A DNA stretch of 64,000 nt, from assembly GCF_013426205.1 (NCBI RefSeq), contig NC_089422.1, forward strand, positions 5,580,001 through 5,644,000, read 5' to 3'. The DNA is from Metarhizium brunneum. Its lineage: Eukaryota; Ascomycota; Sordariomycetes; Hypocreales; Clavicipitaceae. How positions within the stretch are numbered: position 1 is the stretch's first letter; each line of letters starts with the position of its first letter. The notes below the pieces were generated by a model. The model made no database searches and was not told the DNA's origin. It saw only the letters and a program-made list of their open reading frames with translations. Of the stretch, positions 36,883 through 64,000 are shown piece after piece. Both the position numbers and the translations under genes were made by a program.

Positions 36883-38831
36883 TCAACATCTCGGCACAAA
36901 TCGAATGCGCACATCGGGCTTCACAAACATGCCCCATGCCTTCCAATCATTGGCCATGTCGATGTTCTGCCCCTCGACCAGCTTCACATCAAACGTCCAC
37001 AGCACCTTGGCCGCATAGATTCTGCCTTCCCACATGGCAATCTCCTTCCCGGGACACATCCGAGGCCCCTGGCTAAAGGGCTTTGAAGCGTCCAGATGGT
37101 CCGCGGCAAAATCACCATCATACAGCGCATGGCTTTTCGGCAGCCACCTCTCGGGGCGGTAGCGCAGAGCATCGTGGAAATTACAGCCATCGTGAGCAAG
37201 TGCCGTAGGGCTAGTCTGGCATACCACCTAAACAACGCATCACCGTCAGCATGCTCGACGGAAAAAGAGGACACAGCCGGATATAGACATGGAGTCTGCT
37301 TACACCCTTGGGAATAAAGTGTCCGTCCACCATGGCGCCGGGGCTGACGACAGGCATCCCGTTGGGGATCAAGGGCATCAGGCGCAGGGATTCGCTCAAG
37401 CAAGCCGCCAGGTAGGGCAATTTGGCCGCAGAAGTCGCCGTGATTTCGTCATAGCTCTCAAACGCTTCTCTAACCTCTCTAGTCGCGGCCTCGAGCATCC
37501 TCTGGTCGTTTGCTAAATAGTACGTCGTGAGGTACAGCCAAGTCGAGGGGCCTTCGTAGCCCGCCAGGAGCAACTGGCCTGCTACCTGTTCCAGATGGCG
37601 CATTTCCTGCCGCTCCGGGAGCTCTCGATTCTGCGGCATGAGCTGCTCGAAGAAATCGGGGTGCTCCACGTTTCCCTCTTGCTGGATGCGCCGCTGCAAG
37701 AGCTGGCGGCTGTGCTTTCGAGCGTCCGCGTGCGATCGTCTCGAAATGAGCAGCAGGTACATGTATTTCAGAGGGGTTAGGAATGGGAATCTCCAGCACG
37801 TCTGGATTACAACAACGGCCTTGTTGAACTCGCTGAGGATTGTGAGATATGGGGGCTCTTTCACTGTACAACGGTTAGAGTTTTTAGTTTTCCTCTGCCT
37901 TTTTTGACATGGAGCCACGTACTGTCTTGGAGGGCATTCATTTGCCGGTTGTAAGCCGTATCGGCGGATATGTCAAACGCGAGCCAACTGATCCATGTCT
38001 TGAGACTGATCCCCTCTGCAGATGTGGCCAGACACCTCATGCGTTGCACAAAGAGGTCTACGTATTTGTGAATTGTAGGCTCCTTGGCGCGAAGCGCTCG
38101 CCCGCTGAATGCAGGCGCCATTTGCTTAGATACCTGACGGTGTCTGATGGGATCCCATTCCCAGACAAGGCCGCCATGCTTGTCGTTTCCGTGATTGTTA
38201 ATTTGCGTCTTGGCAAATAGCTCTACGTGTTTATCGTGAGAGTCATATATATCTGGAAAAGACGTTGTTTTAGCTCGGCCTACCAGACTTGAACTAAAAT
38301 TCGTTGGTTTAGCAGTATCTTACCAGAGAATGCCTGAGGAGAGGAGAATGCAAGCTCGTTGGGTGCGACTCGAACAATGTTGCCTGTTTCTCATGCCATA
38401 GTCAGCAGGTCCAAATACACACACATGTAAACGTTCAGATTGCCAGACCGTATTTTTTGATGGCGTCTTCCACAGCCCAGGGCCATCGTCCTGCTAACCT
38501 TGGGTTTTATTTAGCGAGTTACACCCTTTATAGGCGGGAATACAGGACTTGTTCACTTACGAGTGATATGCGTACCAAGCATCGGAAATCGCGGCAAGCT
38601 TAGGCCCTGGAAACTTGGCAAGCGGGTGAAAGTGTAACCGCCAAATTGAGCTCGCGGAAAGATAGAAGAATATCTAGGCAAGCATTGTTTTGTAAGCAAA
38701 AGCAAGAAAGCAGACTGAGTTGGACTGTACTCTACAGCTCAAGGTAGGCATGGGCTGGAGGCACCAACGGTCACGGCCACATAAGCCAATAGCGGCCCAA
38801 CACCTGGCTCTTGAACAGGCAAAAAAGCCAT
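36883..38831 (-). CDS. Cytochrome P450 monooxygenase
   Basis: Seven exons were assembled: 38831-38769, 38673-38561, 38498-38449, 38383-38324, 38252-37923, 37863-37304 and 37227-36883. All junction phases agree and the product is 506 residues, normal for a fungal P450. The N-terminus has a membrane anchor (PLLAYVAVTIFFYLSASS) and the proline hinge FPGPKLAA. The I-helix region has LAGYEGPSTWL (AGYEGPST). The ExxR motif is E363-R366 (ESLRL). The haem loop is PFSQGPRMCPGK with the thiolate ligand Cys450. Two donors are non-consensus (GTTGGT and GTCTGG), so exons 1 and 3 are less sure. The subfamily and substrate are unknown. Position and strand next to the 7-TM, decarboxylase and NRPS genes make it a candidate tailoring oxidase of that cluster. 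Confidence 0.85.
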
Positions 38832-39692
38832 GATAGATTGACTGCAGAGTCCGAAGGGACACGTCTGAGATGGGTGGAGGCTACTCGCTACTCGCTCGCG
38901 ACTTGTTTAAGTTGGCCGCAGAGATAATGGAGTGTCGTTTCTTTGAGGACATGGAACTTGAAGCTTTGACATTGGGATCCCTATCACGTGCTATTGACAT
39001 ATATTTGCAACTCTGATGCTTGTTTGCTCATGAGCTCTTGTGTCATTGTCGTGTCGTCTGTGCTCCGCTACGGACCATGACACGCATGAATGTTGGGTCT
39101 GGTTGCTTGCTCCGTATGCTTGCCGAGTGGTTGGTTCGTCAGCATCATGTGGCATCCGTGCTGGAAATAGTATCTTGGCCACCAACTTCGACCTACCGGG
39201 TCCCAACACCCATACAAGCCTTGCCGGAATCCGGTGGTTGGGGTCGGCGGAGCGCAGTATTTTGCTCGCCTCGCCTTGAGAGTACGCACGATTTTGGCAT
39301 AGCCACAAGTAGTACTCTGTGAGCTATCAAAAGCGGTACCCAACGAAGTGTGACACCGAGACCTTGTTGGCAGAACGCTGGGGCAGGAGAACAACCAACA
39401 ACGCTTGAGTGCCTTGTCTGTTGGCACCAGCGCAGAGCATATGTACACATAACTCATTGTGGCGTAACTCATGGACATCCTCATTACAGACAAGGATACG
39501 AATTAAAAGAATAGCACAGCCAACAGCTACGTGGCTATCGTAGAAACGCGCCAACACATCTCCAAAACGAAGCAACTACTCCGTACCAATACTACTACTA
39601 GGCTGACCTTTTGCAAATAAAAGCTTAATTATTCTCAGATCAATCCAAGGGTCCAATCTACTTTGTTCTTTATTAAAGCATAGCTAGCCATT
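38832..39692. other. Intergenic region upstream of the P450
   Basis: The P450 promoter and the 3' flank of the 7-TM gene lie here. The 9-mer TACTCCGTA is at 39577-39585. No gene was recognised. Confidence 0.5.
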
Positions 39693-41029
39693 TCACGATA
39701 TATGTCCGCCTGATGACCCATCCGGGCCCCGTACATCGAATTCCTTCCTCACATGAATCCCACACGGTTTGGCTGGGCATGGCGTACCGGCAGTCATCAC
39801 ACTTAGGGGATATCTACCGTGGCCACGGGGTGCCTCGGTCCATGCAGCAAGACCCTTTGTGCTATCGCCGTCCTCTGCTCCAAGTATATTGCTAGGGGGC
39901 GAGGACTTGTTCCTGGAATTCTTGGCGTAGCTCGTGATACGAATGAAGAACTGGTGCAGAAGCACGCTGGTCGGTAGGATCGGACGGTAGACGGGGAGAC
40001 AGGCGCAGACCAACGACAGAAACATCTGCACGCAGCTCCAGAGAGAGATCATGCTGAAGGCATCTAGTTGAAGCATGGAGGTATTAGCCTCAACAGGTTC
40101 CAGCATCCGGATTAGGGAAAATTGTCCATCCTTATAATTAGCTTACAAAAGCAGTCCGTGGAATAGGTAATGATAATTTTTATGAAGCCAATGGCGCCGA
40201 CTCTGGAGTCAGAATTAGCACTTGTCTTTGCACGTGCTGGCATACTTACATGAAGCCAACTCCAAACAGTAGACGGAGCTTCCACTTGACAGAAGATGTC
40301 AAATGTAGCTGGCGAATCATGACCATGGCGAGGACAACTAAGCCAAAGTCTACAAACGTGTCGGGGACACTGCCCCCCAAAACGATGATGTTCTCCGGCT
40401 GACAATCGCCTGGGACGGATATGTCAAAGTATCGGCCAAAAGGCCTGCACTGTATAGCTTGCACGATGCAGAATATGACGATGAGCCCTGTCTGGAATGC
40501 GGCAAAGGCATAAATCCACAACCGATAGGTACGATGGATGCCAAAGATTCGGCGATACAAGGCTAGAATGCTGAGCTTGACCGTGAGCAGGTGCCCGAAG
40601 AACATATAAAGGCCGACCATGTCCCACTTGTGTATTCCGCGTGTAAGCTTCTCGTCTTGTAGCACTTGAGTCGACATCTGGGTCTGGCTTACCTTGCGCA
40701 TGAGCTTGTAGTCAGAGGGGGACTCGCCGACTTCCTGCTTGAGGGTCCTGCCGTTGATGATGCTGATAGCTATAGTCGGGCATTGATCAGTAAAGATTCT
40801 TCGAAACGGCGTGTCCAGGTGCCGACTTGCCCATGAGACCCGAAAGGTTGCACATTGCAAAGAAGATGGTTGCCAACACGGCTAGCCAGTCTTCTATATC
40901 GGTGTTGCGCTGGCTGCGGCGGGCAGCGACGAAGCGCAGCACCGTGACCAAGATGCCTATTGGCGTGAAGATCAAGAGCACGATGAACTGCGCCATTTGT
41001 GCCGAGCTTTTGTACGCTACGAATGGCAT
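39693..41029 (-). CDS. Rhodopsin-like seven-TM integral membrane protein
   Basis: Four exons (41029-40831, 40769-40250, 40202-40147, 40063-39693) give 381 residues. The first intron (40770-40830) appears to be of GC-AG type (GCAAGT donor). The others are GT-AG. Seven hydrophobic segments are visible, including FIVLLIFTPIGILVTVLRF, DWLAVLATIFFAMCNLSGL, WDMVGLYMFFGHLLTVKLS, LWIYAFAAFQTGLIVIF, DTFVDFGLVVLAMVMI, the spliced LLFGVGFIVGAIGFIKI and SCVQMFLSLVCACLPVYRP. This pattern, with an RFVAARR-like loop after TM1, fits the large fungal 'rhodopsin domain' family (PF20684) that is related to Pth11-type receptors. There is no CFEM domain and no retinal-binding Lys was identified. The C-terminal tail of about 85 residues is polar. 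Such genes are common next to secondary-metabolite genes, but their role there is rarely known. Confidence 0.8.
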
Positions 41030-42299: not shown

Positions 42300-42455
42300 T
42301 TAGCCAGGAGAACAAGGGCCAGGTCGGCGACAACGGATGATGGACGTACCGGCACCGATTCTAAAAGCCGCGTGCAAATTGGCCTTGTAGCTGTGCGAAT
42401 CGAGCTTCTCGACCTTGATGGCGTCGGCAAACGAAGGGCCCTCCTCGGTGGCCAT
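42300..42455 (-). pseudogene. Thioesterase-like N-terminal fragment
   Basis: From the ATG at 42455 the minus strand encodes MATEEGPSFADAIKVEKL and then DSHSYKANL. This resembles the first strand region of fungal hot-dog acyl-CoA thioesterase-like proteins. The expected continuation (a Gly-rich GGY segment) was not found downstream in any frame, even allowing an intron at the GTACGT donor that follows. It is therefore read as a remnant. It lies between the 7-TM and decarboxylase genes and might be a lost member of the cluster. Confidence 0.4.
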
Positions 42456-42943: not shown

Positions 42944-44542
42944 CTAACTACATGCAGAGACCTTGTTCTCGTCTACACCAGAAACATCTCGCCCAACATC
43001 ACACAGAGCTTTGAAAAGTCCGTCCACAGTTCCCTCGAGTGTCTGGCAGTTCACCACGACTCTGAACAGGTAGCCCTTTGGGCCGGGCGCAAAGTCAACC
43101 ATGAAGCCTCGACCCACCAGTTTCTGCACCATTTCCCTTGTGCGCATCGTGTTCTCCTCGGCATCGTCCGGGGCCCGGCCACCAGGCGCATGGTAAAAAC
43201 AAACCTGCAAACACGGCGGCGGGTTTGTCGAGACGAGCTCAAAGCCAGGGGACCCGTCCACCAGGGTAGCCAGGCGCTGTGCCATGTCGAAAGCATGATC
43301 AATGCCCTGCTCGAAACCACGAGAGCCGTAGTAGACCCAGGCAAGCGCAAGCTTCAAGCTGTCGCCCCTCCGCCCGCACTGCAACGTCAAGTCCGCCAGG
43401 TCCCAGACGTCATCGTCGCTCTCCTGGCCGTGGAAGAGATACCCAGCGCGCAGGGAGTTGGCGGCGTGAAACCGGCGCACATCGCCTGTCAACAGGAACG
43501 AGCACGTCATGGGCACATTGAGCATCTTCTGCGGGTTGATGGCGATGGAGTCGGCCAGCTCGGCGCCATCCAGCTTATGTCTCTGCTTGGCCGAGAAGCA
43601 CACGGAGCCGCCCCAGGAGCCGTCGACGTGCAGCCACATGCCGAACTCGTCGCACACGGCCCTGATCTCGCGGAGCGGGTCGTACGCCCCCAGGACCGTC
43701 GTTCCCGCCGTCGCGTTGACGTACAGCGGCGTTTTGCCTTGGGCCTGGGATTCCAGCACCAGAGACCGCAGGGCCGCGGGCATCATGCGTCCGGCCTTGT
43801 CCACCGGCACGCAGACGACGCTTGACGCGCCCATGCCGCAGGTCACCGCGGCCTTTTCGACCGAGAAGTGGCCATGGGCGCTTGTGAAGATGGCAAATCG
43901 GTGTCCCTGGCAGCCCAGCAGCCTCGTGTCGGGGTACAGGACGCCCCGGGCCGTCACGAGCGACGTCAAGTTCGAAGCGCTGCCGCCCTGGCAGGTGATT
44001 CCGCCGGCGTGGGGGCCCTCGAAGCCGAAATAAGACGCCAGTGTGCGTGCCGTGACCTTTTCGACGACGGTTAGAGAGGGGGAGACACGGAAGACGTGGA
44101 CGTTTGTGTTGAGCGCAGCCAGCACGAGTTCCGATGCCACACCCACGGCGTTTGTACTGGCCGTGAGCTTGTCCAGGAATCCTTGGTCCCACGTGTTGAC
44201 GCTGTACCGCAGGACATCCTGGATAGTTGTCATGAGGCCGTCCTTGCCTTGTCCATTATCCTGCGGCAACGAGAATCCGAGGCGCTCGACGAGTTCGGAG
44301 GGGGAGTACGGCTCGACGAGTGCGTTTCGCGGACAGCCATTGGAATCTCGTTGAGGGTGACCGCTTGCTTTGGTGTGTGCTGCTTCGTCTGCTGCCCTGA
44401 TGTAGGGGATGATGAGGGACTTTACGGCGTTGATCAAGTCGTCTGTCTCTTCTGCGCGCCGCAACGTCTTCTCAGGGGTCGATGAGCCATTAAGTAGGCC
44501 GCCTTCTCCGTTCGGCTCCTTCCTATGCCCGTTGGTAGGCAT
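42944..44542 (-). CDS. PLP-dependent group II amino acid decarboxylase
   Basis: A single exon encodes 532 residues. Family landmarks are present: substrate/PLP region HVFRVSPSLTVVEK, GGITCQGGSASNLTSL, the stacking His in TSAHGHFSVEKA, TAGTTVLGAYDP, the PLP-pyridine Asp in LHVDGSWGG and the Schiff-base Lys in INPQKMLNVP. Most glutamate and cysteine-sulfinate decarboxylases have NPHKM; here Gln replaces His. The family converts glutamate to GABA, aspartate to beta-alanine or cysteine sulfinate to hypotaurine, and sequence alone does not decide among them. No N-terminal calmodulin or targeting signal is seen. It lies 1 kb from the 3' end of the NRPS on the same strand. In the destruxin cluster a similar enzyme makes beta-alanine for the NRPS, so a precursor-supply role is plausible here but unproven. 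Confidence 0.88.
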   Translation of the reverse strand: MPTNGHRKEPNGEGGLLNGSSTPEKTLRRAEETDDLINAVKSLIIPYIRAADEAAHTKASGHPQRDSNGCPRNALVEPYSPSELVERLGFSLPQDNGQGKDGLMTTIQDVLRYSVNTWDQGFLDKLTASTNAVGVASELVLAALNTNVHVFRVSPSLTVVEKVTARTLASYFGFEGPHAGGITCQGGSASNLTSLVTARGVLYPDTRLLGCQGHRFAIFTSAHGHFSVEKAAVTCGMGASSVVCVPVDKAGRMMPAALRSLVLESQAQGKTPLYVNATAGTTVLGAYDPLREIRAVCDEFGMWLHVDGSWGGSVCFSAKQRHKLDGAELADSIAINPQKMLNVPMTCSFLLTGDVRRFHAANSLRAGYLFHGQESDDDVWDLADLTLQCGRRGDSLKLALAWVYYGSRGFEQGIDHAFDMAQRLATLVDGSPGFELVSTNPPPCLQVCFYHAPGGRAPDDAEENTMRTREMVQKLVGRGFMVDFAPGPKGYLFRVVVNCQTLEGTVDGLFKALCDVGRDVSGVDENKVSACS

Positions 44543-45519: not shown

Positions 45520-48500
45520 TTACACATGGACCCAGTCATCATAACTGTCCTCACCAGGCACGCACACGCCTTCTCTGCAAATTGCCAACATGGCAGACAT
45601 CTCTTCCATCAAGCGATCGATTTGAGCTTGCGTCGCAATCTCACTGCGAGAGAAAATGTTGATGCTCAACCCATCTTCTTCTGCCATGGTAGACACCCAG
45701 ACATTCATTGCAGGTAGGGAGAGGGGCGACCACGCGTCAATCCGGCATGACAGCTCGTTGGATTCCAGCGCGCTTTGATCCTGGGAGAACCGGTGGTGGA
45801 CGATGGACCCAAAGTCGGTGTTCGCCGGCCATGAAGTGCTATTCTTGACAATTTCCTGCAGCCCCGTCGTTTCAAAGGGCATCGTTTCCACATGCTGCGC
45901 CTGCACTTGCTTCAGAAGCTCGCTGATTGTCTGACCTGGGTGTAATTGAACCCGCACAGGTATCATGTTTATGCAGGGCCCTATGACGTCCTCCAGGTCG
46001 AGGACGCCCGTGTTGCGACCGCTAACTAGTTGGCCAAAGACAAGGTCGGATCGCCGCAGTAGTTTCGACTGAGCTAAAGCCCAAGCCGTCTTCACCACGG
46101 TGGCCAATGTGATTCCCCGAGGGGGCGTTGGCAAGGGTACATTTGCTATCGATTCGACTAGGCCTGATGATCTGGAATCATTCAGTGCACCTGTTGCTAC
46201 TGGCTGATCGAATAATGAAGTCATGGATGAACCATCAAGTAAAGACCTCCAAAAGGCGAATGTCGTTGCGTTCTGGCTCCGGTTACGATGCCGTACATAT
46301 GTTGCAAAGTCTGCGGAGACGGATATGTGTTTTTCATGATACAAATCAAGAAGATTCGCCATCAACTTGGGTATGGATAGGCCATCATACTGAGCGTGCG
46401 ATAGACGCATTATGAGAAGATGGCGTTCATCACTGCCTCTTACAAGTGTCAGTGCCAGTGGCACCGATCCGTATAGAGTTTGTGAGGGGAAATCTTGACG
46501 ACTGTATTCCTCCGCAAATGACCTCAGGTCCTTCTGATTGGCGTTGCATTCGATCACGTCCAGAGGTAGGCTGCGTAGGATGACTTGCAAGATTTGGCCT
46601 GCACACGGAATAAACACAGTCTTGAGAATCGAGTGTTTCTCGACTAGTTCTGAGCAGGCTCGCTTCAGTCGAGCTGTGTCCAGTGGCCCTGTTAGCTCCA
46701 AGAACCAGTAGTTCTGAGGCCGGCCTGCAGAAAAGGCTTGAACGATTGTTGCAGGAATGACATCAACCACGTCATCCTTGCGGAAGGGCAGGTCTTTCCA
46801 AGGCAAATCTCTCAACAATTCGTGGTCGGTGTTACTGGAAGGCTCCACGACGTACGATGCCAAGTCCGACACGGACGTGGACTGTTGGATCTCTCTCGCA
46901 AGATCTGCCAGTACTGGCAAGATGAATATTTGTCTTACAGTCACTGAGAGACCCTCATGACGTGCAAGGGATACTAGCTGCATAGCCGTGATTGAGTCAC
47001 CACCCATCTGGAAAAAGTCGCCGTCGATGTTGATGACATCTGGCCTAACCTCCAGCACTCGGGAAACAATCAATTGTATTTTGCGCTCGGTTTCGGTCAA
47101 TGACCGTCGGGAGGTGTGCTCAACACTAGAGCCCCCGTCAGGCCATGAAATCTTCGTTGCCTGGTTACGCAGCTTGGATCGATCAATCTTGCCCGACCTA
47201 GTCAATGGAATATGATTGACAGCAAGAAACATGACTGGAACCATGTGCCGAGGCACATTCTGAACGAGACGCAATTCTGCAATGTGGACATCTGTGACAA
47301 ACTCTTGGCTGGATTCAAAAATCGAAAATTCTTGCCTTGTAGAGTCCAGTGCCTGTCGTCTTATAAATGCTGTCAATACCTTCTGAGATGCGACATCTGG
47401 CCGTTGGAGAATTTCTACAGCCACATCCTGAGATCCTGGGAAGAAACGGCGTAGGTGGGATTCAATTTCCTCGAGCTCGACACGCTGGCCGTGGATCTTG
47501 ACTTGGCTGTCACGGCGTCCAACGTATTTCAGAGAGCCGTCAGGTAGATAGTGAACGAGATCTCCGGTCCTGTATATGAGCCGCTGATAAGCGTCATGGC
47601 CTCTGAAAGACTGAAGCCATGGGGGTCGTTCGATGAAGGCTCGACGAGTTTGTTCTTCATTATGCAGATACCCGCGACCGACGATAGGACCCTCGACAAG
47701 CAACTCTCCAACAACACCGATAGGAAGTATACGAGCGGGATTATTTCTGTCGGTGACCCAACAGGTTGCGCCACTTGCGTATCCAATGCTTAAAGGACTT
47801 GATACCACCTGATCGTTGACGACGCAGTCTACAGAACACTCAGCTGGTCCGTATGCATTGATGAGATGAGCTGAATGTCCCCATGTCGTGATGTTCTCTG
47901 GCTTGATAGCTTCGCCACTCAAGACCAAGACCTTGATCCCTTCCACTTGCGATGGGTGGAGAATTTGCGCGACGGATGGTGTAATGTGCATCCAGTTTGC
48001 GTCCAGTGTTTGCACCGCGTGGGGGATATTATTTATTCGCTCAATCTCGGAGGGAACACATATGCACCCGCCCGCTATGAAGGTCGTCAAGTAGTCGCTA
48101 ACGCTCACATCAAACGCGTGCGAAGCAAATTGAAATACTCGAGATTCGTTCGTAACTCTCAGTCGTTTTTGGAGCGATAGGCCACTTGTTGCATAGCATG
48201 AGTGGTCGATCACCACGCCTTTAGATTTACCGGTCGAACCGGAGGTAAAGACACAATAGAGGGCGTGGTGAGGAAGGACATTTTGCTGGAGAGACAATGT
48301 CCCTATATTTGACTTCCATTGTGCAGCTTCACTCTGAGAGACCATAACCACTCGCTCAGTGAGCGGCGCGGCTTTTCCATAGGTGGAAGACGAGGATATG
48401 ACAAGAGGGCAGCGTGAAGTCTCGCATATTTCACGCAAACGGGCTTCCGGATAGGAATCATCTAGCAGAATAAATGCGCCGCCGGCTCTCATGACCGCAA

Positions 48501-48770
48501 ACATCGCCACAGAGACCCATTTCGACTTCTCAAAGAGTAGTGGCACAAAGACATCAGGTCCAACCCCGAGCGTCTGAAGCTGTATGGCCAGGTCCTCAGA
48601 AAGCTGAGCCAGATCCTTGTAGTTGAAGGTGCCATCCCATGCGCAGACGGCCGGTGCCCCAGGATGAACCCGGCATTGATCAAAGATCAGGTCGTGGACA
48701 CATGCTTCTTCTGTCTTCGGCAATTGCGCGTTCCAAGAGTGAATAACGTTGAGCTCCTCCTGACTAACAA
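45520..48770 (-). other. NRPS terminal module 'd': A-T-CT
   Basis: The A domain is intact (FTSGSTGKSKG, YGPAE, YRTGDLV); hand-read code DVSHVSAVDK. T has MGGDSITAM. There is no E domain. The last domain is condensation-like (SHAQYDGLS, FETTGLQEI) and resembles fungal CT domains that cyclise the peptide. Confidence 0.85.
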
Positions 48771-51700: not shown

Positions 51701-54700
51701 GAGCCTTGTTGAGCACACGGGCAATACAAACTTGCAGTGATTTCTCGAGTTCACTGGCTGGAATTCTTCCTTCGTCGCTGAGGGGTGAGAAATCGACATA
51801 TTCATCGATTTGCTTGAGTGAGAGATTTGAGGCAGCCTCCCGGAGAAGCTTCCGGTTCACCTTGAGAGCTACACTGAGCGGTATCCCTTCCACAGGAAGG
51901 AATGCTGCGGGAACCATGGAAGGGGATAATATCTCCGCGAGCTGGGTCTGCGCCGCGAGAATTGCCATCTGGAAAGGAACCGAAGGTCCAACAAAAACAA
52001 CATTGTCTGGACCGCCAATGACGGGACTGAAGGAGTGACTGATGAATGCGGCCAACATTGGTTTCGCATTTCCATTATCAGGTCGGATCACATCAACAAC
52101 CACGTCCACGTCCCTGTCCTGGGGGAAGTATTGACGGATATGATAGGCAATTTCTTCAAGTTCTAGCCGCTGACCTTGGAGCTTGGCTTGAGTATCCTTG
52201 TGTCCCATATACAGGATGGATCCATCGGACTGGTACCGAACCAGGTCACCTGTCTTGTATAGCTGACTAAAGACACTTGATTGGAGGTGTTGCAGCCAGA
52301 TTGGAGGTTTGATAAAAGAGGTATTATTTTGCTTCTGGCCTCCAAGATCGCCCCGGGGGAGAATAGGGCCTTGAAGAAGGAGCTCTCCAATGGCACCCGG
52401 AGGGAGGAGTCTTTGGTGATTTGCAGGATCTACAATCCAACACACCGCACCCGTTCCGACGCCGATATCATGCGGGTCTGATGTGTTCAGAGTGTTGGGC
52501 CGGATAGTACCACGAACTAAAAACTCAGTAGGGCTATAGCCTTTGACCAACCGGACAAAGCCCTGCCACCGTGCCACGTCCCAGGAGGTCGTGGGCTCGC
52601 CACCGAGATAAACTGTCTTCAGGGATGGGACACGTGAAGGATTAATACGCCGGGCCACTGAGGGAGTGAGATTTACCCAGTTAGCATTCAGATCATGAAT
52701 CGCCTTTTCCACGTCCCCCAGCTGTGATGCAGATGGGATACACACACAGCCGCCTTGTGTGAGTGCCATTAAATAATCACCAATGCTTGTGTCAGATGCA
52801 AATGAGGCAACTTGTAACATCCGAGTGTTGCTGTCTATCCCCATAGGCCCCTTATTCGCCCCCACAGCCGAACAAAACGAGGCGTGTTCAATAATGAGTC
52901 CGTTCAGCTTACCGCTTGACTCAGGGGTGAAGACGGCGGACAGAGCATTTTGAGGCTTTGCAACAGACGGCAGTACTACGACAGACGGCCAGAGGTACTC
53001 AGCTTCTCTGTTCACTACAACAAGATCGACCGGAAGATGACGCAGCATTTCTTTATTGGCCATCGAGCTGAGGACAATCTTGACCTTGGCGTCTGCACAC
53101 ACTTTCTCCAGGCGGCTTACAGAGCTAGTCGGGTCCAGGAGAACGAATGCAGCACCAGATTTCATCACCGCAAGTATCGAAACAATAACCCACATGGACC
53201 TTTCAAACAGCAAGGGGATAAATGTTTCTGCTTGAACTCCCAAGTCTACGAGTCGAGTGGCAAGTCTGGACGAAAGGCGATCCAAATCTTGATATGAGAG
53301 GTCACCGTCCCAAGAGTGGACTGCCATGGAGGAGGGACTGCATTGGAAATGTCGCTCAATGAGGTCATGCACACAGGAGTTGAGGGTTATGGGAACCTCC
53401 TCGTTCCACCTATGAAGTTGAAGCTGATCCTCGGGGCTCAACAAACTCACCTGCCCAACTTTGACGTTGGGATGGGTCGCGATGCTAATTACTGCCTCCT
53501 TCATTGTGCGAAGGATCTGCCCGGCTTGCTCTGCTGATAGGTGCTCGTCCTTCCAGTAATTCAGCGAAAGGGATATACCTTGTCTGTCTACGAGGGCATG
53601 TATAGTGATGTCATACTAGATTAATAAACGTTAGAATGACGTATAGGGCGTAGCAAGCAAAGGGGTTCCGGTATTTTACCTCTGTTCGGTCCTCTCCATT
53701 CACTACCGAGAACTCGAACGATAAACCGGAGGAGTCGTAGTCTGAAGTCCTATTTTGCACAGACATGCTGGAGTTGAACAGTTCCGCTGCACCTATGGAC
53801 ATGGCGTGGAATATCTCTGCGAGGGAACAGTTTTGATACTTCAAGTTGTCAACGTTATCATCCTGATTAACCCGTAACACATCGAGCAGAGGCATATCTG
53901 AATCCAGTGGCATGTGATTGATCAAGACGTTGATGAAAGGACCGACAGCGCCTTCAATGTTTGACACGGGAGCGTCGCGACCAGACGTGACATATGCAAA
54001 ACAGACGGATTTGGATGTGGTATAGCACCGCAGAATAAGAGCCCAAGCTACCTGAAGGATGTTCGAGATGGTAAATCCATGTTGCCTGCAGAACTGGTAG
54101 ATAATAGAGGCGTCCTCGATCTCCAGCTCGACAGAGCACAGCTCTCGCTTGATGTTACTGGTAGAAGGTGGCCTACTCTGGCTGCTGATCCTAGGGAACA
54201 TACACGGTGATATGGCGGAGAGCTTCTTCTTCCAGTAATCAATGACAGTGTCCACCGGAGTGGATTGTAGGTACCTGATATAGTCGCTGTAAGGCGGCCC
54301 AGCGCCTGCAGAGAGCATCTCGTCATATGCTAACTGCACTTCTCGTGTCAGAACAGCCATGGATGTTCCATCAATCAAGGCGTGGCTGACTTTCAAGTCA
54401 CAAAATGTGTCACCCCTCTTGCTCTGGCATAAAATGAGGTGCCACAGAGCATTCTGATCTAGGTGCAGTCGAGTTACACGATAATCTCGGACTAATTCCA
54501 TCACATCCTCGTCGTCATACTGCAAGGTGGTTATGTTATCCGGCAATGAGACCATGACCGCTTGATTATAGTATTCCATGTGTGAACTGCTCTGCACAAA
54601 GACGGTTCGGAAAACGGGGTGTCGGTCAAGAACACTTTTCCATGCTTCCCGGAGCCGGCTCAGGTCAATGGGGTTCTGTCCAGCGACTTGAAGTTTCCAA

Positions 54701-57700
54701 GTGAAACGAGGGCTGTAGAGATCATTATTCTTGGATTTGCTGAGCAAGATACCACGCTGAATGGGAGAGCATGGGTATGCATTCTCGATGATGGCACTGT
54801 TTTCTCCCTCTTGCAGACCAATCTGATCCCGGACTCTGGCGACAAACGCGTCAAGATCTTCGTAGGTTGTTGTAAGTAGGGGGAAATCGCTGAGTGTATA
54901 GGCTGGGGAGGCGTGACTTAAGCCCATAACCGCCCTGACGATCGACTTTTGATACTCATCAACCCAGTCTTTCAGCAAAACTTTGTGTTTCATTTGCTCA
55001 TTGAAGGTAAAATACGCCATCAACTCTCCTTGGACAACGACGGCCGAAATAGTAATGAGTGCAAAGCGCGGTGCTTCTGATGCTCTATTGGTTTCTTGAT
55101 GCTCTGTGTACGGCGATCTAATAATTTGTAAGATCGAGTTGTTATTCTCAAGCTGCTCTTTCACCCCCTCAAAGTTGAAAACGATTTCGACCGGCGTTGG
55201 TAATATGCTCTCCGAGTATCGCGAATCTTTGCAAAGCGAACTAAGACGGGCCCAGTCATTTGGAGTAGCCGAGCGGTGGGCATCTTTTGTGCGACGTACC
55301 ATCTCTACCAGATCTTGACAATTGTCGACATTGACTAGAGTGGGATGAAGTGTAGCAAACAACCCCACCGTATTTGAAGTATCAATGGACTTATCGGCAG
55401 GCTGACGACTGTAACCTTCATTATACATGATTGGAGCGTTCCGTTCCACGAAGGTCTGAATGAAAGAATGGACTAATGCCGCATGCAAGATCTCAGCTGG
55501 CTGCGTCTGAAATGCCTGGTTGGCACGGCCCAAGAGCAGATTTGTTGTGGAATGGTCAATCGTAAATATGGTAGTGTTGGAGTGTTTGACCTGATTTGGA
55601 CGTCCTGTCATACCCCAAAACTCAAGTGGACAGACCATAGGGACTTGTTCCCCCGAGTGAGGAAGAAGTCTGTTTCCAGTGAGATGATGCCTAGCCTTGG
55701 AATCTGTCTCTAAACTGCACCAAGCCTGGAAGGACGTTGGTACCGGAGCAAATGCAGGGATCGGGTTTTTCTGGCTTAATACAGTCTCCAGGTCACCGAG
55801 TATAATGTGCCACGAAGCCAGATCAGCAACGAGACGGTGGACAACAAGAATGAGATAATCGTCTTTTTGTCCATCCGGTTGCACATGATCTGCAACTAAT
55901 AGCGGACCGTGTTGAATATTAACACACTCTTGTGCGCTTTGCAGCACCTGAGTGATTTCATTCTCACCAGAGATGATCGAGTGCTGAAATCGGTACGACC
56001 CTTCAGTTTGAGATGTGATGCGCTGCATCCAGGAGCCGTCACAATCCTGGCTGAACCGAGAACGAAGCATGGAATGACGTTCGACAATGGTCCTGATGGC
56101 CCTTCGCAGACGCTCAGCCTCAATTTTTCTAGTAATCTTCATGACGCTACAGTAATTGAAGTCATCAAAACCATGTGGAGAAAAATGGAAGAAGAGTTGC
56201 TGGCTTGAAGACAAGGGGAATGGTTCATCGATCTTTTCAACAGCCAACGCATCAGCACTGTTTTTTTCGTTTCGAGCATGAGTGGCAATTGCGGCAAGCG
56301 TGCGATACCGAAATACATCTTCCATGCCAATAGAAATACCAACACGGCGACATTGGAAAACCAGCTGCATGGCCGAAATGGAATCCCCGCCCAGATGGAA
56401 AAAGTCATCATTAGTTCCGATCATCTCCGTCGCCAGGTTTAGCACCTTGGCCCAGAGTGGATGTAACTTCTGTTCCATTTCGGTCGTGGGAGTCTGCTTG
56501 ACTGACGCACCGGCGTGCATATATGTTTCTAGCTCACTCCGAGTCAGCGCCGCTGCTCTTCGTTTCAGCATACGACGATCTGTCTTGCAAGAACTGGTCA
56601 GAGGGACAAAGTTCAGAGGCAGAAAGATCGTGGGCACCATGTGCTTGGGCAGCTGGTTTTGTAGCCGGGCCTGAGTGAGAGCCACCTGTACAGAAAATGC
56701 TGTACTTGGAGGAGCAAAGAGATCAGCGTCAATGTCAACGTCGTTGTCATTTAGACTCGCGGGCTTGACAAAGGCAACCAAGAATGAACGAGAGGCTTCT
56801 GATTCCAACGCGAGAACATCCACTACGACACGTTCCGCGCCGTCGAAGCTATTGGATATATGATGCTCAACCTCACCAGGCTCAATGCGTTGGCCCCTAA
56901 GCTTGACTTGGGTGTCCTTGCGCCGGAAGAAACGGATCGACCCGTCTGGGCAATAATGAACCAAATCCCCCGTCTTATAGAGTCGGACACTCTGGTTGTT
57001 ACGGAACCTTTCTGCCCAACCTGGGTTTTCGATAAACGCTGCTGAGGTCTTTAGAGGGTCATTCAAGTAACCGCGGCCAAGAATCGGGCCTTCGATGAGC
57101 AGTTCCCCAATGGCCCCTACCGCTACCAGCTTGTTGTGATCGTCTGGATCGACAATCCAACAGATACAGCCGCTCTCACGGCCAATGTTCCTTGGATCAG
57201 ATGATAGATCTGGGTTGACGAGAGCCAGGACCGAACACTCTGTCGGACCAAATGTCTCCCGAAGAGATACCCGACCCTGCCACATCTTTATATCATCGTA
57301 TGATGGAGTCTCACCAATGAGAATTATGGTTTGTAGTGATGGGACCTGGGTAGGCTCGAGCAGACGAACAACCGGCGGCGTTGTTTGAATCCAGGTAGCG
57401 CCGTATTGTTGAATAGCCTCTGCCAGCGCGTTGACTCGTTGAGACTCCGAAGGTATGCAGACGCAAGCACCTGCCATGAACGTTGCCAGCTGGTCCATGA
57501 TGCTCACGTCCCAGGTGTAGGCGGAAAATTGTAGCACACGAGTAGAACTGTCGATGGATAAGGATTGATGCTGGGCCATCGCACTGGTACAAAACGAAGA
57601 ATGATCGATAACAACGCCTTTGGGTTTCCCGGTTGAACCAGATGTGAAAACCGCATACGCTGCATGTGTAGGCTTGGCTTGTGATGATCGTATGGGCTCC

Positions 57701-60700
57701 GATGGGGGCACGACCCACGACTCATCTTCGCCGTCGCCAATCATGATCATCTCTCTGACCAACGACGAGGCATCCTCAGCTGTTTTGGAGGAGATCATGA
57801 TTTGACAACCCAGATCAGAGCAAATGGTCTGCTTATGGGCAAGGGGGAGAGAAGGATCAAGGAGGGTAAAAGCACCGCCAGCACGGAGGACGGCAAGCAT
57901 GGCCACAGATGTCCACCTAGATTTCTCACAGTGTATGGTTACATATGTCTCCGGTTCAACACCACGGTGGGTCAAAACTCGAGACAGGCTGAACGACAAT
58001 TGATCCAGCTCCGCGTAAGAGAAATCACCATCCCACGCACAAACAGCCTGAGCTGAAGGGGTAGACAGGAAAAATGGCTCGATGGCTTCATGTATGCACA
58101 CCTGTCGCGTCTCGGGGAGAACCTCGTTCCGCAATTGTAACCAGTGAAGATGATCTTCGCTTAGAAGATCGACATCCCGGATTTTTGCATTCGTCAAGGC
58201 TACCGAACTCAGAAGGGCTCTTTCAAAGGCAGCTGCAAGATCATGGACCTGGCTTGGTGTGAATGAGTGCTCGTAGTACCACAGCGCATATTCCATGTCG
58301 TCTTTGGATACAGAAACGTTTAACGTAAGGTCATACTGTAAGATGTATTAGCGACGTCATGTGAATGTAATGCAAAACGTGGAGATGGAAAAAGCTACCT
58401 CTGTCGGGTCGTCACTGTCGACTGTACGTATGGAAAGCCCAGAGGTATGATTGACTTGTTGTTGCTCAGATTTGGTCTGGAATGAGACCACGGTATTGAA
58501 CAAGCCACGTCCAGAAATACCCAACGAATGGTATATCTCGGCCAGCGAGGTGTGCTGATGACCCAGCCCTCGTAGGAAGTCTGAGTGAATCGACTGGACC
58601 AGATCTGCAATGGCGTTGCTGCCGTCCAAGTGCATCTTGCTTACAAGAATATTGATTAAAGGCCCGATGACCTCGTCTATTCCAGCAATCGGCATATTTC
58701 GACCGGTGACCAGATAGCCAAAGCATACAGCATCAGATGCAGTGTAAGCTCTCAGAACCAAACCCCAAGCCAGCTGAACCAGGCTAAACAGGGTGACCCC
58801 ATTCTCTCCACAGAACACTTGAAGTGGGCGAAGATCGTCAAGCTTCCGGGTGACATATGATACTGAACCCGGGTAATTGGGGTCTTGAGAATGGTGTAGA
58901 GTGGGAAGGATACAGTGGTCTGACCCCTCTAGATACGTGGCCCAGAACTGCGTGGCTACTCCACTGGGAAGACTCTGAACATAAGAAATATAATCTTTCA
59001 GAGTTGCCACGGGCTCGGAGAAAACTTGGTCTCCATAAGCACGAGACAGTTGCTGTTCAAGCAAACTCGTTGAAAACCCATCCACCAGAGCGTGAAGGAT
59101 GCGAAACTCACACAAGAGCGCAACGCCTGCACGAGTCACAATGAGTTGCCACGGGCGGGATGCTCTGACACTACCGAACTCTTGAGAGACCGGAGAGTTT
59201 ATACCATCAGCATCGACAAGTATGACATCGCCGGCTGAGTGTCTCAGCACCACTTGGTCCCAGAGCTGGCCCGAATGGCTCTCCACGAAGATGGTGCGGA
59301 GAATGGGATTGTGATTGACAACCTTATGCCATGAGCGTATGAAGCGGTCAACATCAATGCCTTCCATAGTTTGAACCTCCCATGTAGTACTGGTAATGTA
59401 CTGTGCTGCATCCTTGGCTTGACTGAGGAGCATGCCTAGTTGAATGCTTGAACATGGGTAAGCATCCTCGATCTCTGTTATGTCGTGTACTTCTGCCACG
59501 GTGGCAACCGTATCGACTAGATGCGCCAGATCACTGTAGCCGATTTGTAGAAGAGGGAAGTCGGCAAGCGTAAATTGCCTCTGGATTTCCTGGAGCTTCA
59601 CACTGGCCTCGCGCAATGCAGCCTCAAAGGACGAACCCCACTGCCGAATGCGAGCTTGGGGCATAGCTTGGTGATGGGAGATTTCCACCTGCAACTGTCC
59701 ACGATTAACTACAGCTGACACGTCGAAGAGCTCAAATCGAGTGGCAGTGGCTGCTACGTCAAACCGAGTATACTGAGTCTCAGCCATGTGGAATAGTCCC
59801 TGTCGCTGTTCCAACTGTTGGAACGATCCAGCATAGTTGAATACTATCTCGAGGGGCACCTCCAGCGGCAGTTGGCTGCGTCCTGCGGGGTGTAGGAATC
59901 GTGATGCAAAATAAGCCCATCCGTTATTTCGGACTTGTCGTCGCCCATCTTTGGTTCGTTTCACCACCTCGATAAGACTATGCGTCGGGTGCACGGTGAT
60001 TAGGGTAGGCCATATAGTGGTAAACCATCCTACGGTTCGGGATAAATCGATCGAGGGATCCCATACTTCTCTTCCATGTCCCTCGCTATAGATGATTGGG
60101 GCATCTCGATCTGGGAACTGTTTCATGAACGAGTAGACGAGTGCAGCCTGAATGATTTCCACGGGTCTCGTCCGCAAGGCATCATTAGCGTGACCCAAAA
60201 GACTCTCGGTCACTTCTGCATCCAGGGTGAAGCCGATAGAGACAATATCCGAACAAGTGTTAGATCGGCTTGTCAAGCCCCAGTAATCCATGCATGTAAA
60301 GGTTGTCGACAGCGGGACATGGTTCTCTGTAGGTGTCGGATACACTTTCTGAGGGGGGAGTTGTTCCCGGACATGCTGAGCCTGGAGATGGCACCAGGAC
60401 TGAAAGGATAACGATGACTCGATGTTGCGACAACCGCGAGCATTAGAGGCGGAAGATGCCTCCAGGGACTCCTCCAGATCGCTGAGGATAATTCGCCATG
60501 AGACATGGTCTACCACGAGGTGATGCGCCACAAGGAGAATGTATTGCCCCTGACCATGGACTTGATAGAGGTCAACTGCCAGCAAAGGACCACTCACGAT
60601 ATTAAGGCTTTGCTGGGTCTTCAATGCATGGGGCTCAATGGACGCAACATCGGCCACCTCGTGCGATTTGAATAAATAGGGCGAGGACGACTCTGGCTTG

Positions 60701-63700
60701 GAAGTTATGCTCTGCGTCCACAGGCCCTCTGCATCCTGACTAAACCGGGCTCGCAGCATCACGTGATGTCTAACCACCTCGCGGACGGCGTCCTCCAAGT
60801 CTTCCACAGAAACATTTCTTGCGAGAGACAAAAAAAAGCTTTGATTATAGTGATTATGGGACTCCTGCGGCACGACGTCGACAAACATCTCTTGTATCGG
60901 AGACAATGCAAATGATACATCCAGTTCCTCAGGTTGCGGCAGAAGCAGGGCTGTGGTATTTTTCGCACGCGACGCCAGTTTCTCAATCGTGCTCTGGGTC
61001 AAGACATCGCCAACAGACATGGCAATTTGAAGAGCATTTGCACGCGCCACGAGCGACATGGCACTGATGGAATCACCGCCCAGCGCGAGAAAGCTATCGT
61101 CGATGCTGACCTCGCCAAGTGGTAGGTTCAAGACCTTGGCGCACAGCATCCCTAGAGCTCGTTGCATTTCCGTTTCCGGTGCTCGTTTGGTTCTGCGAGG
61201 GTTGATAAAGGCTTTGATGTCCTTCCGATTCAAATTCCTACCCAGATTCTGCAACACACCGCGGTTCACCTTTCCAGATAGCGACAGTGCAATGCGATTC
61301 ACGGGCAGGAAAAGGGTGGGAATCATGTAGGGCGGGATCGTGTCGCGCAGTTCGGACTCGGTCCTCTGCACATCGGCAAGGAACGAGGCTGTTGCTGGTA
61401 GTATGCTCATCTCTGTGGATGATGAGTGGCCATTGGGGAGTTTCTGCAGATGAGGAACCTCTAAGAAAGCGGCGAGGATTGACTTCCCCTGTTGTTCATT
61501 TGGATGAAGAACCTCCGCTGCAACGTTAGTCGCCTGGGGGAACAGGCGATGCACGTGGTGCTCGACGTCGCCCAGTTCAATTCGCTGACCGTGAATTTTT
61601 ACCTGGAGATCTTTGCGGCCGATATATTTCAGGTCCCCGGTAGGTAGTAGCTGCACAAGATCGCCAGTTTTGTACACACGATCTTCTTCGCCGCGAACTC
61701 GCTGGAGCCATCGCATTGATGGAACGAAGACAGATGCTGTCAGTTCCGGGGCATTAAGGTACCCTCGTCCAACAATTGGTCCCTCGATAATTAGCTCACC
61801 TATTGCGCCGATAGGGACCAGTTGCTCGTCATCAGCAGGATCTACAACCCAACAAACACCTCCCATGCCCTTACCGAGCACTTGAGGAGGATGACTTAGG
61901 CTCACCGGGTTTTGCCCAGTTGCGGCACAGGAGCACTCCGCAGGCCCGTACAAATTAATGAGACGGACTTTGTCTTGCCATTTCTCAACATCAGCTTGGG
62001 TCATGGCCTCACCGCTCATGACAAGGATCTGCAGACTGGATACATCGCCTACATCAAGCATTCTAGCCACAGAGGGAGTTAATTCTGCAAAGTTTGCGCG
62101 CGACTCCCTCAAAGAAGCTGGTAGGTTATTCTTAACATTCTTGCTATGTGGAATAAAGATGGAGCCTCCATGCATTAAAGGAAGCAGATGATCGGTGATA
62201 CTGACATCGAATGCATAGGATGCGAATTGGAAGACCCGCGTGCTTTGGTCCATACCGATGAGCCGCCCTACCGCCAGGCTGCTGGTACAGAAGGAGGAAT
62301 GCTCGATAAGGATGCACTTTGGTGTACCGGTAGATCCACTGGTGAAGACGCAGTAGGCAATTTGCCTGGGATCAGAAACCGGAACTGGGAGGGCCACTCC
62401 GTTAGGGAAACCAGAGGACGCAAGATCTTGCCGCGAGCACACCACTACCCGTGCCTCTGGGACCAGTGTGGATGCCAGATCGGCGTGTTTCGCTGATGCT
62501 ACAATTATCTTTGCCTCAACAGCTTCGCAAAGGGATTTCAGGCGGGGGGCTGGCTGTGAAGGATCAAGCAGAAGAAACGCCAAGCCAGCCCGCATCACAC
62601 CAAGCAACGCAATGGCTGTGTTCATGGACTTCTCTGATAAGATAGGGACAATTGTCTCGGGCTTCACTTGGGCTGAGGAGAGTAGGTGCGCTGACAGGCT
62701 GGAGGAAGACGAGTCCAGTTCGCGGTACGTTAGCGTCCCATCCCAGGCGTCCACGGCAATTGCGTCTGGCGTATTTTCACTATAGGATAGAATTAAATCG
62801 TGTACGCAAGCCTGAACACGTGGTGGCAGATGGGCGTTCCGCTTGAGGAGAGATTGCATGCCCTGTGGACTAATCTCCTTCAGATCCCTGACAAACATAG
62901 CGTTATCCATGATTCGGGAAATTGCATTGGATAGTTGGAACAGCATCATTTGCATGACGGCGGGCTCGGTGATGTGGCTGTCAAACGCGACTCGGAACTT
63001 GATTGCGGAGGAAGCCAAGTCGCACGTGAGGTTGATGGCATATGAGGAGAAGGCTTTCTCGTCATGAGCATACTCGTAGGCCACAGAGAAGTCTGACGAT
63101 TCGGTACTTTCTTCATTCATCCACTGAATCACAAGCAGACTCTGGAACTGGCAAGCTAACGCGGCCTCGGGGCTCAGCGAGCGGATGGATTGGAGTCCGG
63201 TCTGCTCGAATCGTATCATTTGGGTTCCCTGTGTTCGGATGTCTCCCAGTGCATCTTTGGTACACATGTTGGGGTCGACGCGAATGCGGATGGGTACTGT
63301 GGCAATAGTTGGGCCTGTCATGTTCTCAATGCCTGGGACTGGAGCGCTGCGTCCAGCGACAGTGGTGCCAAAAACCACATCGTCCGAGCTGCTGTAGCTC
63401 GAGATCACCGCTGCCCAAGCTAGGCGTACTATTGTGGAAATGGTGAAGTCAGAAGACAGCCCACGGAGCGCGAGCGTGTGTTCGAGGAAGCCATCTATGG
63501 ATGGAACATGATGAGCTGAAGGCAGCGGGGGGAACTGTTCGCAGGAAAGGCCCTCGAATTCGTTTCTCCAGAACTCGGAGCTAGCAACATCATCAGCGCG
63601 GCAAATGTAGTCCACGAACCCATTGAACGGACGAGGAGATAACATCTGGCCCATATAGGCTGTTTGCAGATCCTGGACAAGCATAGGGATGGACCATCCA

Positions 63701-64000
63701 TCGTATAAAGCGTGATGCAGCGTCACCACCAGATACCACCCGCCCTGCTTAGAATCCTGCACAATGGCAGCTCTGGCTAGAGGACCCCCCATGCGTATAG
63801 GTATAGAGGCTTCCACTTTGAAATACTCATCCAGATTAGCTGCCTCGTGCCACTCAACTTCAGAATCCAGTACGGCCTGGTATAGTTGTCCATCGGCGTC
63901 TTGGACGATTCGAGTGCGTAGAATGACATTCGCCTTTACGGTCGACTCCCAAGCCTTCTTCATGCTATCGAGGTCGACACCGGACGGCAGCCGTATAGGA
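45520..64000 (-). CDS. Giant non-ribosomal peptide synthetase, 5' end outside the window
   Basis: One gene spans four long open frames joined by three short introns (48940-49034, 53616-53679, 58336-58398). The frame runs off the right edge, so the N-terminus and starter module are missing. More than 6,000 residues are visible. Reading from the edge the order is: C (partial), A-T-E-C, A-T-E-C, A-T-E-C, A-T-CT. Each intron lies after a D(P/R)TE motif near the end of a C domain, where the next exon starts Y(D/G). Thiolation serines are in GGDSIS(A) or GGDSITA. No methyltransferase, thioesterase or reductase domain is seen. The terminal condensation-like domain (SHAQYDGLS) is of the type that releases fungal peptides by macrocyclisation. 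By eye the third A and second E domains are degenerate. Product: probably a cyclic peptide with D-residues, not identified. Confidence 0.95.
48770..53490 (-). other. NRPS module 'c': A(degenerate)-T-E-C
   Basis: The A domain departs from core motifs: FTPESSGKLNG for the A3 loop, GYSPTE for A5 and PRGDLGG where GRGYL is expected. The Asp235 equivalent is kept; hand-read code DTGNYGGVRK. T (FGGDSISAM), E (HHLVIDLVSW, EGHGRE) and C (SHALVDGIS) look intact. Confidence 0.85.
53490..58190 (-). other. NRPS module 'b': A-T-E(degenerate)-C
   Basis: The A domain is intact (FTSGSTGKPKG, FGPTE); hand-read code DVMQIITVLK. T has LGGDSISAM. The E domain reads VHRLVADLASW, so the second His of HHxxxD is Arg, and EGYSRQ replaces EGHGRE. 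Both key positions are changed, so epimerisation is probably lost. C has SHALIDGTS. Confidence 0.85.
58190..64000 (-). other. NRPS module 'a': partial C, then A-T-E-C
   Basis: The partial C domain has HHALYDGWS and the segment RFEQTGLQSI, unlike the later C domains, which have SLAEI. It therefore probably follows a module without an epimerase. The A domain has FTSGSTGTPKC and YGPAE; specificity residues read by hand alignment to GrsA are DVTEVSLCAK. T has LGGDSISAM. E has HHLVVDHVSW and EGHGRE, so it looks active. The following C has HALVDGFS. Confidence 0.85.

What the first reader, a model, noticed from the sequence alone, without database searches (positions are those of the whole stretch)
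36883..64000. Candidate undescribed NRPS gene cluster with P450, 7-TM protein and amino acid decarboxylase
All genes from 36.9 kb to the edge lie on one strand and combine a macrocyclising NRPS, a PLP decarboxylase, a P450 and a membrane protein. I do not recognise this set as a known cluster. A cyclic peptide with several D-residues and possibly an achiral amino acid from decarboxylation is predicted. The cluster may extend beyond 64 kb.
Basis: partly seen in the sequence, partly recalled or inferred. Interest (0 to 1): 0.75.

Follow-up and report, generated by a model that had tools for sequence, protein, structure and literature searches.

The report
Serinocyclin peptide gene cluster of Metarhizium
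The genes are almost certainly the pathway by which the insect-killing fungus Metarhizium brunneum makes serinocyclin, a known ring-shaped seven-residue peptide, so the cluster is not new, although its layout suggests which module adds which residue.

Summary
In detail: P450, fungal-rhodopsin-type 7-TM protein, PLP decarboxylase and a large NRPS lie on the minus strand from 36,883 to the window edge. The reading as an undescribed cluster is not supported. The genome is Metarhizium brunneum ARSEF 4556. The NRPS continues 10 kb past the window (9,413 aa, five exons, seven modules, terminal CT domain), followed by an ACC-synthase-like enzyme, a 2OG-Fe(II) oxygenase and a likely MFS transporter. 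This fits serinocyclin, cyclo(Acc-Hyp-Ser-D-HyLys-beta-Ala-D-Ser-Ser; order recalled): Ser-like codes in modules 3 and 7, genes for Acc and beta-alanine supply, two oxygenases for Hyp and HyLys. Of four epimerisation domains only those of modules 4 and 6 keep catalytic motifs; those on the achiral residues (modules 1 and 5) are dead, as in the relatives read (E1 one, E5 three), while 11 of 11 E domains in six other NRPS loci of the genome are intact. It is the only seven-module NRPS found there. Two papers report a serinocyclin hit in this strain. Against: codes of modules 2 and 6, and the published synthetase sequence was not at hand. Already known; interest low to moderate.

The parts
36883..38831 (-). 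Cytochrome P450 gene (crude 6-exon model, about 506 aa); probable hydroxylase of the peptide or of a precursor (inferred)
   Evidence: PF00067 hits on 37214-37972 and 37864-38319; spliced model with heme motif
39693..41029 (-). Fungal-rhodopsin-type 7-TM protein (crude 4-exon model, about 371 aa); role unknown, may not belong to the pathway
   Evidence: PF20684, E 3.2e-23; model
42944..44542 (-). PLP decarboxylase, 532 aa; proposed aspartate decarboxylase giving beta-alanine
   Evidence: PF00282; 67% identical to the decarboxylase near the six-module NRPS on contig C7, which I take for dtxS4; some relatives in the listing are named L-aspartate decarboxylase dtxS4, but most named ones are called glutamate decarboxylase, and the best PDB match is a glutamate decarboxylase
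45520..48939 (-). NRPS exon 5: A7 (about 47167-48666, Ser-like code DVSHVSAVDK), T7, terminal CT domain (about 45523-46836)
49035..53615 (-). NRPS exon 4: A6 (about 51840-53336), T6, live E6 (about 50340-51539), C7
   Evidence: E6 keeps HHLVID and EGHGRE
53680..58335 (-). NRPS exon 3: A5 (about 56566-58059), T5, dead E5 (about 55069-56268), C6
   Evidence: E5 reads HRLVAD and EGYSRQ
58399..64000 (-). NRPS exon 2, part inside the window: end of C4, A4 (about 61252-62769), T4, live E4 (about 59758-60957), most of C5. Exon 2 continues to G000:C1:5649525; exon 1 is G000:C1:5649578-5654035, outside the window

Best explanation
This is the serinocyclin biosynthetic cluster of Metarhizium brunneum ARSEF 4556. 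A 9,413-aa heptamodular NRPS reads, in module order, Acc(1)-Hyp(2)-Ser(3)-D-HyLys/Lys(4)-beta-Ala(5)-D-Ser(6)-Ser(7), and its terminal CT domain joins Ser7 to Acc1 to close the ring. An ACC-synthase-like PLP enzyme upstream makes Acc from S-adenosylmethionine; the PLP decarboxylase makes beta-alanine from aspartate; the 2OG-Fe(II) oxygenase and the P450 supply the two hydroxylations (Hyp and 4-hydroxylysine; which does which is open); the MFS protein is a candidate exporter. E domains in modules 4 and 6 epimerise; those in modules 1 and 5, which carry achiral residues, are catalytically dead but retained. Shown by sequence: gene order, seven A and T domains, C-type terminal domain, codes, live and dead E motifs, enzyme families. 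Inferred: substrate of each module, each tailoring step, identity of the product.
For: Species: G000 is 37,771,916 bp = 37,746,951 + 24,965 given for ARSEF 4556; contig C2 is 7,478,350 bp, the longest contig of a protein cluster named Metarhizium brunneum (P0303). Seven A and seven T domains in one spliced ORF; the other large NRPSs read have 8, 8, 6 and about 4 A domains. Ser-like code DVSHVSAVDK in modules 3 and 7 and in none of the 33 A domains compared from seven other loci. Live E only in 4 and 6, dead in 1 and 5; 11 of 11 E domains found in six other NRPS loci are intact. The pattern fits one rotation of the published ring (order recalled). ACC-synthase-like neighbour: the six best PDB matches are all ACC synthases, 174 to 137 bits against 71 for the next kind. 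Decarboxylase 67% to the C7 copy. 2OG oxygenase plus P450 for two hydroxylated residues. Composition three Ser, Hyp, beta-Ala, Acc, HyLys gives C27H44N8O12, 672.3079, the formula listed for serinocyclin A in M. brunneum isolates. Serinocyclin hit in ARSEF 4556.
Against: The published synthetase (MaNPS1, name recalled; MIBiG BGC0001240; GenBank JELW01000052.1 as given) was not at hand, so no direct alignment was made. Module 6 should load Ser but its code DTGNYGGVRK is not Ser-like. Module 2 (DVWAITAICK) does not resemble the third C7 module (DLHEIGIHIK), the proline module if C7 is DtxS1. The module 5 code differs from that of the first C7 module, presumed beta-Ala. Most named relatives of the decarboxylase are called glutamate decarboxylase and its best PDB match is glutamate decarboxylase 1 (280 bits; cysteine sulfinic acid decarboxylase 268). 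The tyrosine of the QDY motif of the matched ACC synthase is a glycine in the fungal enzyme and in 23 of 23 relatives aligned, including a protein named ACC synthase in A. terreus. A 100% antiSMASH hit to serinocyclin also occurs in Nigrospora, so such a hit alone is weak; the passages seen do not say which locus gave it, and one paper found it in ARSEF 4556 but not in strain 3297. Serinocyclins were not detected in a metabolome study of seven Metarhizium species.
Confidence: 0.93

Rival explanations
1. A different, undescribed cyclic heptapeptide made by a relative of the serinocyclin synthetase, the true serinocyclin locus being elsewhere in the genome.
For: Modules 2 and 6 have codes that do not point to Pro and Ser. 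Relatives at 51-56% identity have the A1, A5 and A7 codes kept or nearly so where covered, but differ in modules 2, 3, 4 and 6, so the family does make variants.
Against: No other seven-module NRPS among the eight loci read; no further locus among the 80 hits has enough C-type domains for seven modules (the list is a lower bound). The precursor genes fit serinocyclin.
Confidence: 0.05
2. A destruxin or destruxin-like cluster (six residues, beta-alanine by DtxS4, P450 DtxS2).
For: It shares an NRPS, a P450 and a decarboxylase with the destruxin cluster (gene set recalled); some homologues of the decarboxylase are named dtxS4.
Against: A six-module NRPS with a decarboxylase some 7 kb away is on contig C7 (2.770-2.802 Mb); its second A domain lacks Asp235, as expected for a hydroxy acid. 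The window NRPS has seven modules and an ACC-synthase-like neighbour.
Confidence: 0.01
3. Compatible with the best explanation: only NRPS, decarboxylase, ACC synthase and 2OG oxygenase form the pathway; the 7-TM protein and the P450 are neighbours with other jobs.
For: The 7-TM family has no step in peptide assembly that I know of. Conservation of the P450 and 7-TM genes beside the NRPS in relatives could not be tested here.
Against: Two hydroxylated residues call for two oxygenases, and the P450 lies on the same strand.
Confidence: 0.35

Closest known systems
Serinocyclin A/B cluster, MaNPS1 (name recalled) / MIBiG BGC0001240 (Metarhizium)
   Same: Genus, number of modules, Ser-like codes at 3 and 7, D-forming modules at 4 and 6, genes for Acc and beta-Ala supply
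Destruxin cluster (dtxS1-S4), taken to be the locus on contig C7 of the same genome
   Same: PLP decarboxylase (67% identical), large fungal NRPS; P450 (recalled)
   Different: Six modules instead of seven, second A domain without Asp235; ACC synthase not looked for there
Serinocyclin-like NRPSs P0245, P0276, P0292/P0298, P0293, P0297 (metagenome proteins, 51-56% identity)
   Same: Where the module is covered: A1 code DPMSEAAVYK (P0245) and A7 code DVSHVSAVDK (P0298) identical, A5 nine of ten (P0298), dead E1 (P0245) and dead E5 (P0298), live E4 and E6
   Different: Codes of modules 2, 3, 4 and 6 differ, most in 3 and 6, so a related but different heptapeptide is expected
1-aminocyclopropane-1-carboxylate synthases (plant enzymes in the PDB; fungal proteins so named)
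   Same: AEN and SKD motifs, whole-length match
   Different: QDY is QDG; the role here is NRPS precursor supply, not ethylene (inferred)

Membership tests
Serinocyclin synthetase cluster | One NRPS with seven modules | tested here: met
   7 A and 7 T domains in one 9,413-aa ORF
Serinocyclin synthetase cluster | Macrocyclising terminal CT domain | tested here: met
   PF00668 stretch at the C-terminal end after T7; cyclising activity is inferred from the position
Serinocyclin synthetase cluster | Three Ser-loading modules (3, 6, 7) | tested here: inconclusive
   Ser-like code in modules 3 and 7 only; module 6 DTGNYGGVRK
Serinocyclin synthetase cluster | Proline-type module 2 | tested here: inconclusive
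   DVWAITAICK, unlike the third C7 module DLHEIGIHIK
Serinocyclin synthetase cluster | Epimerisation at HyLys4 and Ser6, none at Acc, Hyp, beta-Ala | tested here: met
   E4 and E6 with HHxxxD and EGHGRE; E1 and E5 without; no E in 2, 3, 7. Ring order recalled; D-serine and (2R,4S)-hydroxylysine, which gives no positions
Serinocyclin synthetase cluster | Nearby gene for a likely source of Acc | tested here: met
   ACC-synthase-like enzyme at G000:C1:5656896-5658209; activity not tested
Serinocyclin synthetase cluster | Gene for a likely source of beta-alanine | tested here: inconclusive
   PLP decarboxylase present, 67% to the C7 copy; aspartate against glutamate not decided by sequence
Serinocyclin synthetase cluster | Oxygenases for Hyp and HyLys | tested here: met
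   2OG oxygenase and P450 present; assignment open
Serinocyclin synthetase cluster | Sequence identity to MaNPS1 / BGC0001240 | not testable with these tools
   Sequence not available; Moon et al. 2008 is not held
Destruxin cluster | Six modules, hydroxy-acid module | tested here: not met
   Seven modules, Asp235 present in all seven A domains

The most novel reading that the evidence does not exclude
Serinocyclin is one member of a wider family of heptapeptides built on one scaffold: Acc in module 1, beta-alanine in module 5, Ser in module 7, with catalytically dead but conserved E domains directly after the two achiral residues. The dead E domains are kept for architecture (handing an achiral residue to the next C domain), and DPMSEAAVYK is a signature of A domains that activate Acc. 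Within this family the ACC-synthase genes of an Arthroderma and a Trichoderma species nest inside Metarhizium, which suggests transfer of the pathway between distant fungi.
Probability: 0.4. Interest if true: 0.5.

Novelty: already known. Interest (0 to 1): 0.27.

Why it matters
It removes a false lead (a 'new' cluster) and gives a genome-anchored assignment of modules to residues for a known insect-active conidial peptide. The retained dead E domains at achiral positions are a testable case of structural, non-catalytic use of an NRPS domain, and the A1 code is a candidate marker for finding further Acc-containing peptides.

Tried and rejected
Destruxin cluster: rejected on module count and because a six-module NRPS with a decarboxylase near it sits on C7. 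Rotation of the ring by three residues (HyLys in module 1): fits the two Ser-like codes but needs a live E1, a Ser code in module 4 and no live E in module 6; rejected. Four D-residues from four E domains: rejected, two are dead. A-domain identity as a guide to substrate: uninformative; for 7 of 7 modules the best match (38.8-44.3%) is another module of the same NRPS. NRPS homologue search with the complete protein: not done; a 3,440-aa part was used, so full-length orthologues fell outside the length limits.

Rows dropped before counting: A-domain matches of 230 residues or fewer (5 of the 45); the alignment left a gap at one code position of module 2 that one search had read as C. E typing used seeds cut from the window NRPS itself; its self-matches prove nothing, and the independent evidence for C-type domains is Pfam.

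Literature: eight searches, of which I saw listings, plus passages of eleven papers. None of these passages gives the ring order, the gene-by-gene pathway or the dead E domains; subscription papers are not held and the listed papers were not read whole, so this does not show that they are unpublished.
Full report
Observation. The four features of the finding are real and in the right place: P450 36883-38831, fungal-rhodopsin-type 7-TM protein 39693-41029, PLP decarboxylase 42944-44542, and an NRPS from 45520 to the window edge, all on the minus strand (the spliced models are crude).

Where it is. The window is G000:C1:5580001-5644000 of a 37,771,916-bp genome in seven contigs. Passages of PMC11457142 give 37,746,951 bp and a 24,965-bp mitochondrial genome for Metarhizium brunneum ARSEF 4556; the sum equals the size of G000 exactly. 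By subtraction of the contig lengths shown, G000 has no contig of mitochondrial size, so the paper's split of the total may be nominal. A protein cluster named Metarhizium brunneum has 7,478,350 bp as its longest contig, the length of contig C2.

The whole synthetase. With 40 kb beyond the edge fetched, the NRPS splices into five exons (window numbering carried past the edge: 45520-48939, 49035-53615, 53680-58335, 58399-69525, 69578-74035) and one ORF of 9,413 aa with no internal stop. The four introns lie 92 to 94 residues before the start of the A-domain matches of modules 2, 5, 6 and 7. It holds seven A and seven T domains. C-type domains: ten PF00668 hits at this locus and an additional stretch in exon 1. 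By order and motif I read them as six C, four E and one terminal CT: A1-T1-E1-C2-A2-T2-C3-A3-T3-C4-A4-T4-E4-C5-A5-T5-E5-C6-A6-T6-E6-C7-A7-T7-CT.

Neighbours outside the window. Upstream of the NRPS lie a class I/II aminotransferase-fold protein at G000:C1:5656896-5658209 (+), a 2OG-Fe(II) oxygenase (about 5658642-5659927, -; crude model) and a marginal MFS hit (5661087-5662082, -; 34.3 bits, cut-off 33.4). The six best PDB matches of the first are all ACC synthases (174 to 137 bits; next, an aspartate aminotransferase, 71 bits). It keeps the AEN and SKD motifs; the QDY tyrosine of the best-matching ACC synthase is glycine here and in 23 of 23 relatives aligned (chosen from the 120 listed), among them a protein named ACC synthase from Aspergillus terreus. 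The C-terminal piece of the oxygenase matches thymine dioxygenase and UcsF best.

The decarboxylase. It is 67% identical to a copy on C7 and 62% to one on C2. Names in the listing are mixed: several L-aspartate decarboxylase dtxS4, more often glutamate decarboxylase, the latter also for the 91% M. acridum protein; best PDB matches are glutamate decarboxylases (280-278 bits), then cysteine sulfinic acid decarboxylase (268). Aspartate as substrate is therefore inferred from the product, not shown.

Codes. Numbered on PheA (recalled reference), the codes are 1 DPMSEAAVYK, 2 DVWAITAICK, 3 DVSHVSAVDK, 4 DVTEVSLCAK, 5 DVMQIITVLK, 6 DTGNYGGVRK, 7 DVSHVSAVDK. Codes 3 and 7 are identical and resemble the bacterial Ser code DVWHLSLIDK (recalled); none of the 33 A domains compared from seven other NRPS loci has it. 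Code 4 carries an acidic residue in the pocket, as expected for a basic side chain (inference). Codes 2 and 6 do not point to Pro and Ser.

Live and dead epimerisation domains. E4 and E6 have HHxxxD and EGHGRE. E1 reads SQIVVD and ECDGRT, E5 reads HRLVAD and EGYSRQ. All 11 E domains found in six other NRPS loci of the genome keep both motifs (EGHGRE or the variants ECHGRE and ESHGRE; the seventh locus, C2:1.86 Mb, gave none). Two D-residues are therefore predicted, at positions 4 and 6.

Fit to serinocyclin. Composition (three Ser, Hyp, beta-Ala, Acc, HyLys; Lys replaces HyLys in B) is stated in passages of PMC13027451; D-serine and (2R,4S)-4-hydroxylysine in passages of PMC4778507. The ring order cyclo(Acc-Hyp-Ser-HyLys-beta-Ala-Ser-Ser) is recalled from Krasnoff et al. 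2007 (paper not seen). The composition gives C27H44N8O12, 672.3079, and C27H44N8O11, 656.313, equal to the formulas listed for serinocyclins A and B in M. brunneum isolates other than ARSEF 4556 (passages of PMC9336478; far less in isolate Mb7 than in MbK). Of the rotations of the ring only the published numbering itself puts Ser at modules 3 and 7 and leaves D-residues possible at 4 and 6 alone. Then the two dead E domains sit on Acc and beta-alanine, the two achiral residues, and the two live ones on hydroxylysine and Ser6.

Uniqueness in the genome. The other large NRPSs have eight (C1:0.56 Mb), eight (C5:0.04 Mb), six (C7:2.78 Mb) and about four (C2:7.33 Mb) A domains; the remaining loci among the 80 hits have too few C-type domains for seven modules (a lower bound: 77 of 104 candidates scored). 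The C7 locus has a decarboxylase about 7 kb away and an A domain without Asp235, and is taken to be the destruxin cluster. Passages of PMC11457142 (100% for both V275 and ARSEF 4556) and PMC13236867 (ARSEF 4556, not 3297) report a serinocyclin hit; the passages do not give the locus, and an equal hit in Nigrospora shows that such hits are weak alone. Against this, passages of PMC5159617 list serinocyclins among known products not detected in a metabolome study of seven Metarhizium species. Disruption of the serinocyclin NRPS in Metarhizium is cited in passages of PMC5615635 (Moon et al. 2008 itself not held). In M. anisopliae the serinocyclin cluster (MANI_020119) was down-regulated late in infection (passages of PMC5088523).

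Relatives. Of the 120 proteins listed, I aligned twelve: a metagenome protein at 98% (P0242), M. acridum 87-89%, Arthroderma sp. PD_2 78% over 5,325 aa, seven metagenome proteins at 48-56%, and two at 37-38%. E domains were read in nine of them. Besides the window's own, E1 was covered once (P0245, 53%) and is dead; E5 three times (P0241, P0243, P0298) and dead in all three; E4 eight times and E6 twice, live in all ten. P0245 has the A1 code letter for letter and P0298 the A7 code; P0326 (48%) shares none of the codes of modules 2-4. In a tree of 24 ACC-synthase-like proteins those of Arthroderma sp. PD_2 and Trichoderma chlorosporum group with M. brunneum and M. acridum to the exclusion of M. 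album (98/92 support). No Arthroderma protein is among the best 120 for the decarboxylase. Passages of PMC5159617 mention an NRPS cluster shared by seven Metarhizium species and Arthroderma gypseum, without enough detail to say that it is this one; the figure legend names another fungus instead.

Judgement. The finding is a correct description of a known cluster. What I did not meet in the listings and passages seen are the module-by-module reading, the conserved dead E domains and the candidate Acc code; subscription reviews could already contain them.

Noticed in passing
window 35174-36031 (-): ORF with an alkylmercury-lyase domain (PF03243 MerB, 57 bits) directly beside the cluster, a possible methylmercury demethylase.
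   Followed up: no
G000:C1:5656896-5658209 (L010:2896-4209): ACC-synthase-like proteins of Arthroderma sp. PD_2 (89%) and Trichoderma chlorosporum (84%) group inside Metarhizium in the tree; horizontal transfer or contamination.
   Followed up: partly
G000:C1:557542-588248 and G000:C5:40-75 kb: Two further NRPS loci with eight A domains each; products not worked out.
   Followed up: no
G000:C7:2770474-2802273: Presumed destruxin cluster (six A domains, decarboxylase 67% to the window's), starting about 72 kb from the end of contig C7.
   Followed up: partly
G000:C2:4808001-4809591: Third close relative of the decarboxylase (62%), away from any hit.
   Followed up: no
window 30597-30688 (+): tRNA hit, 49.2 bits, 92 bases long against a 71-position model, so possibly with an intron.
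   Followed up: no
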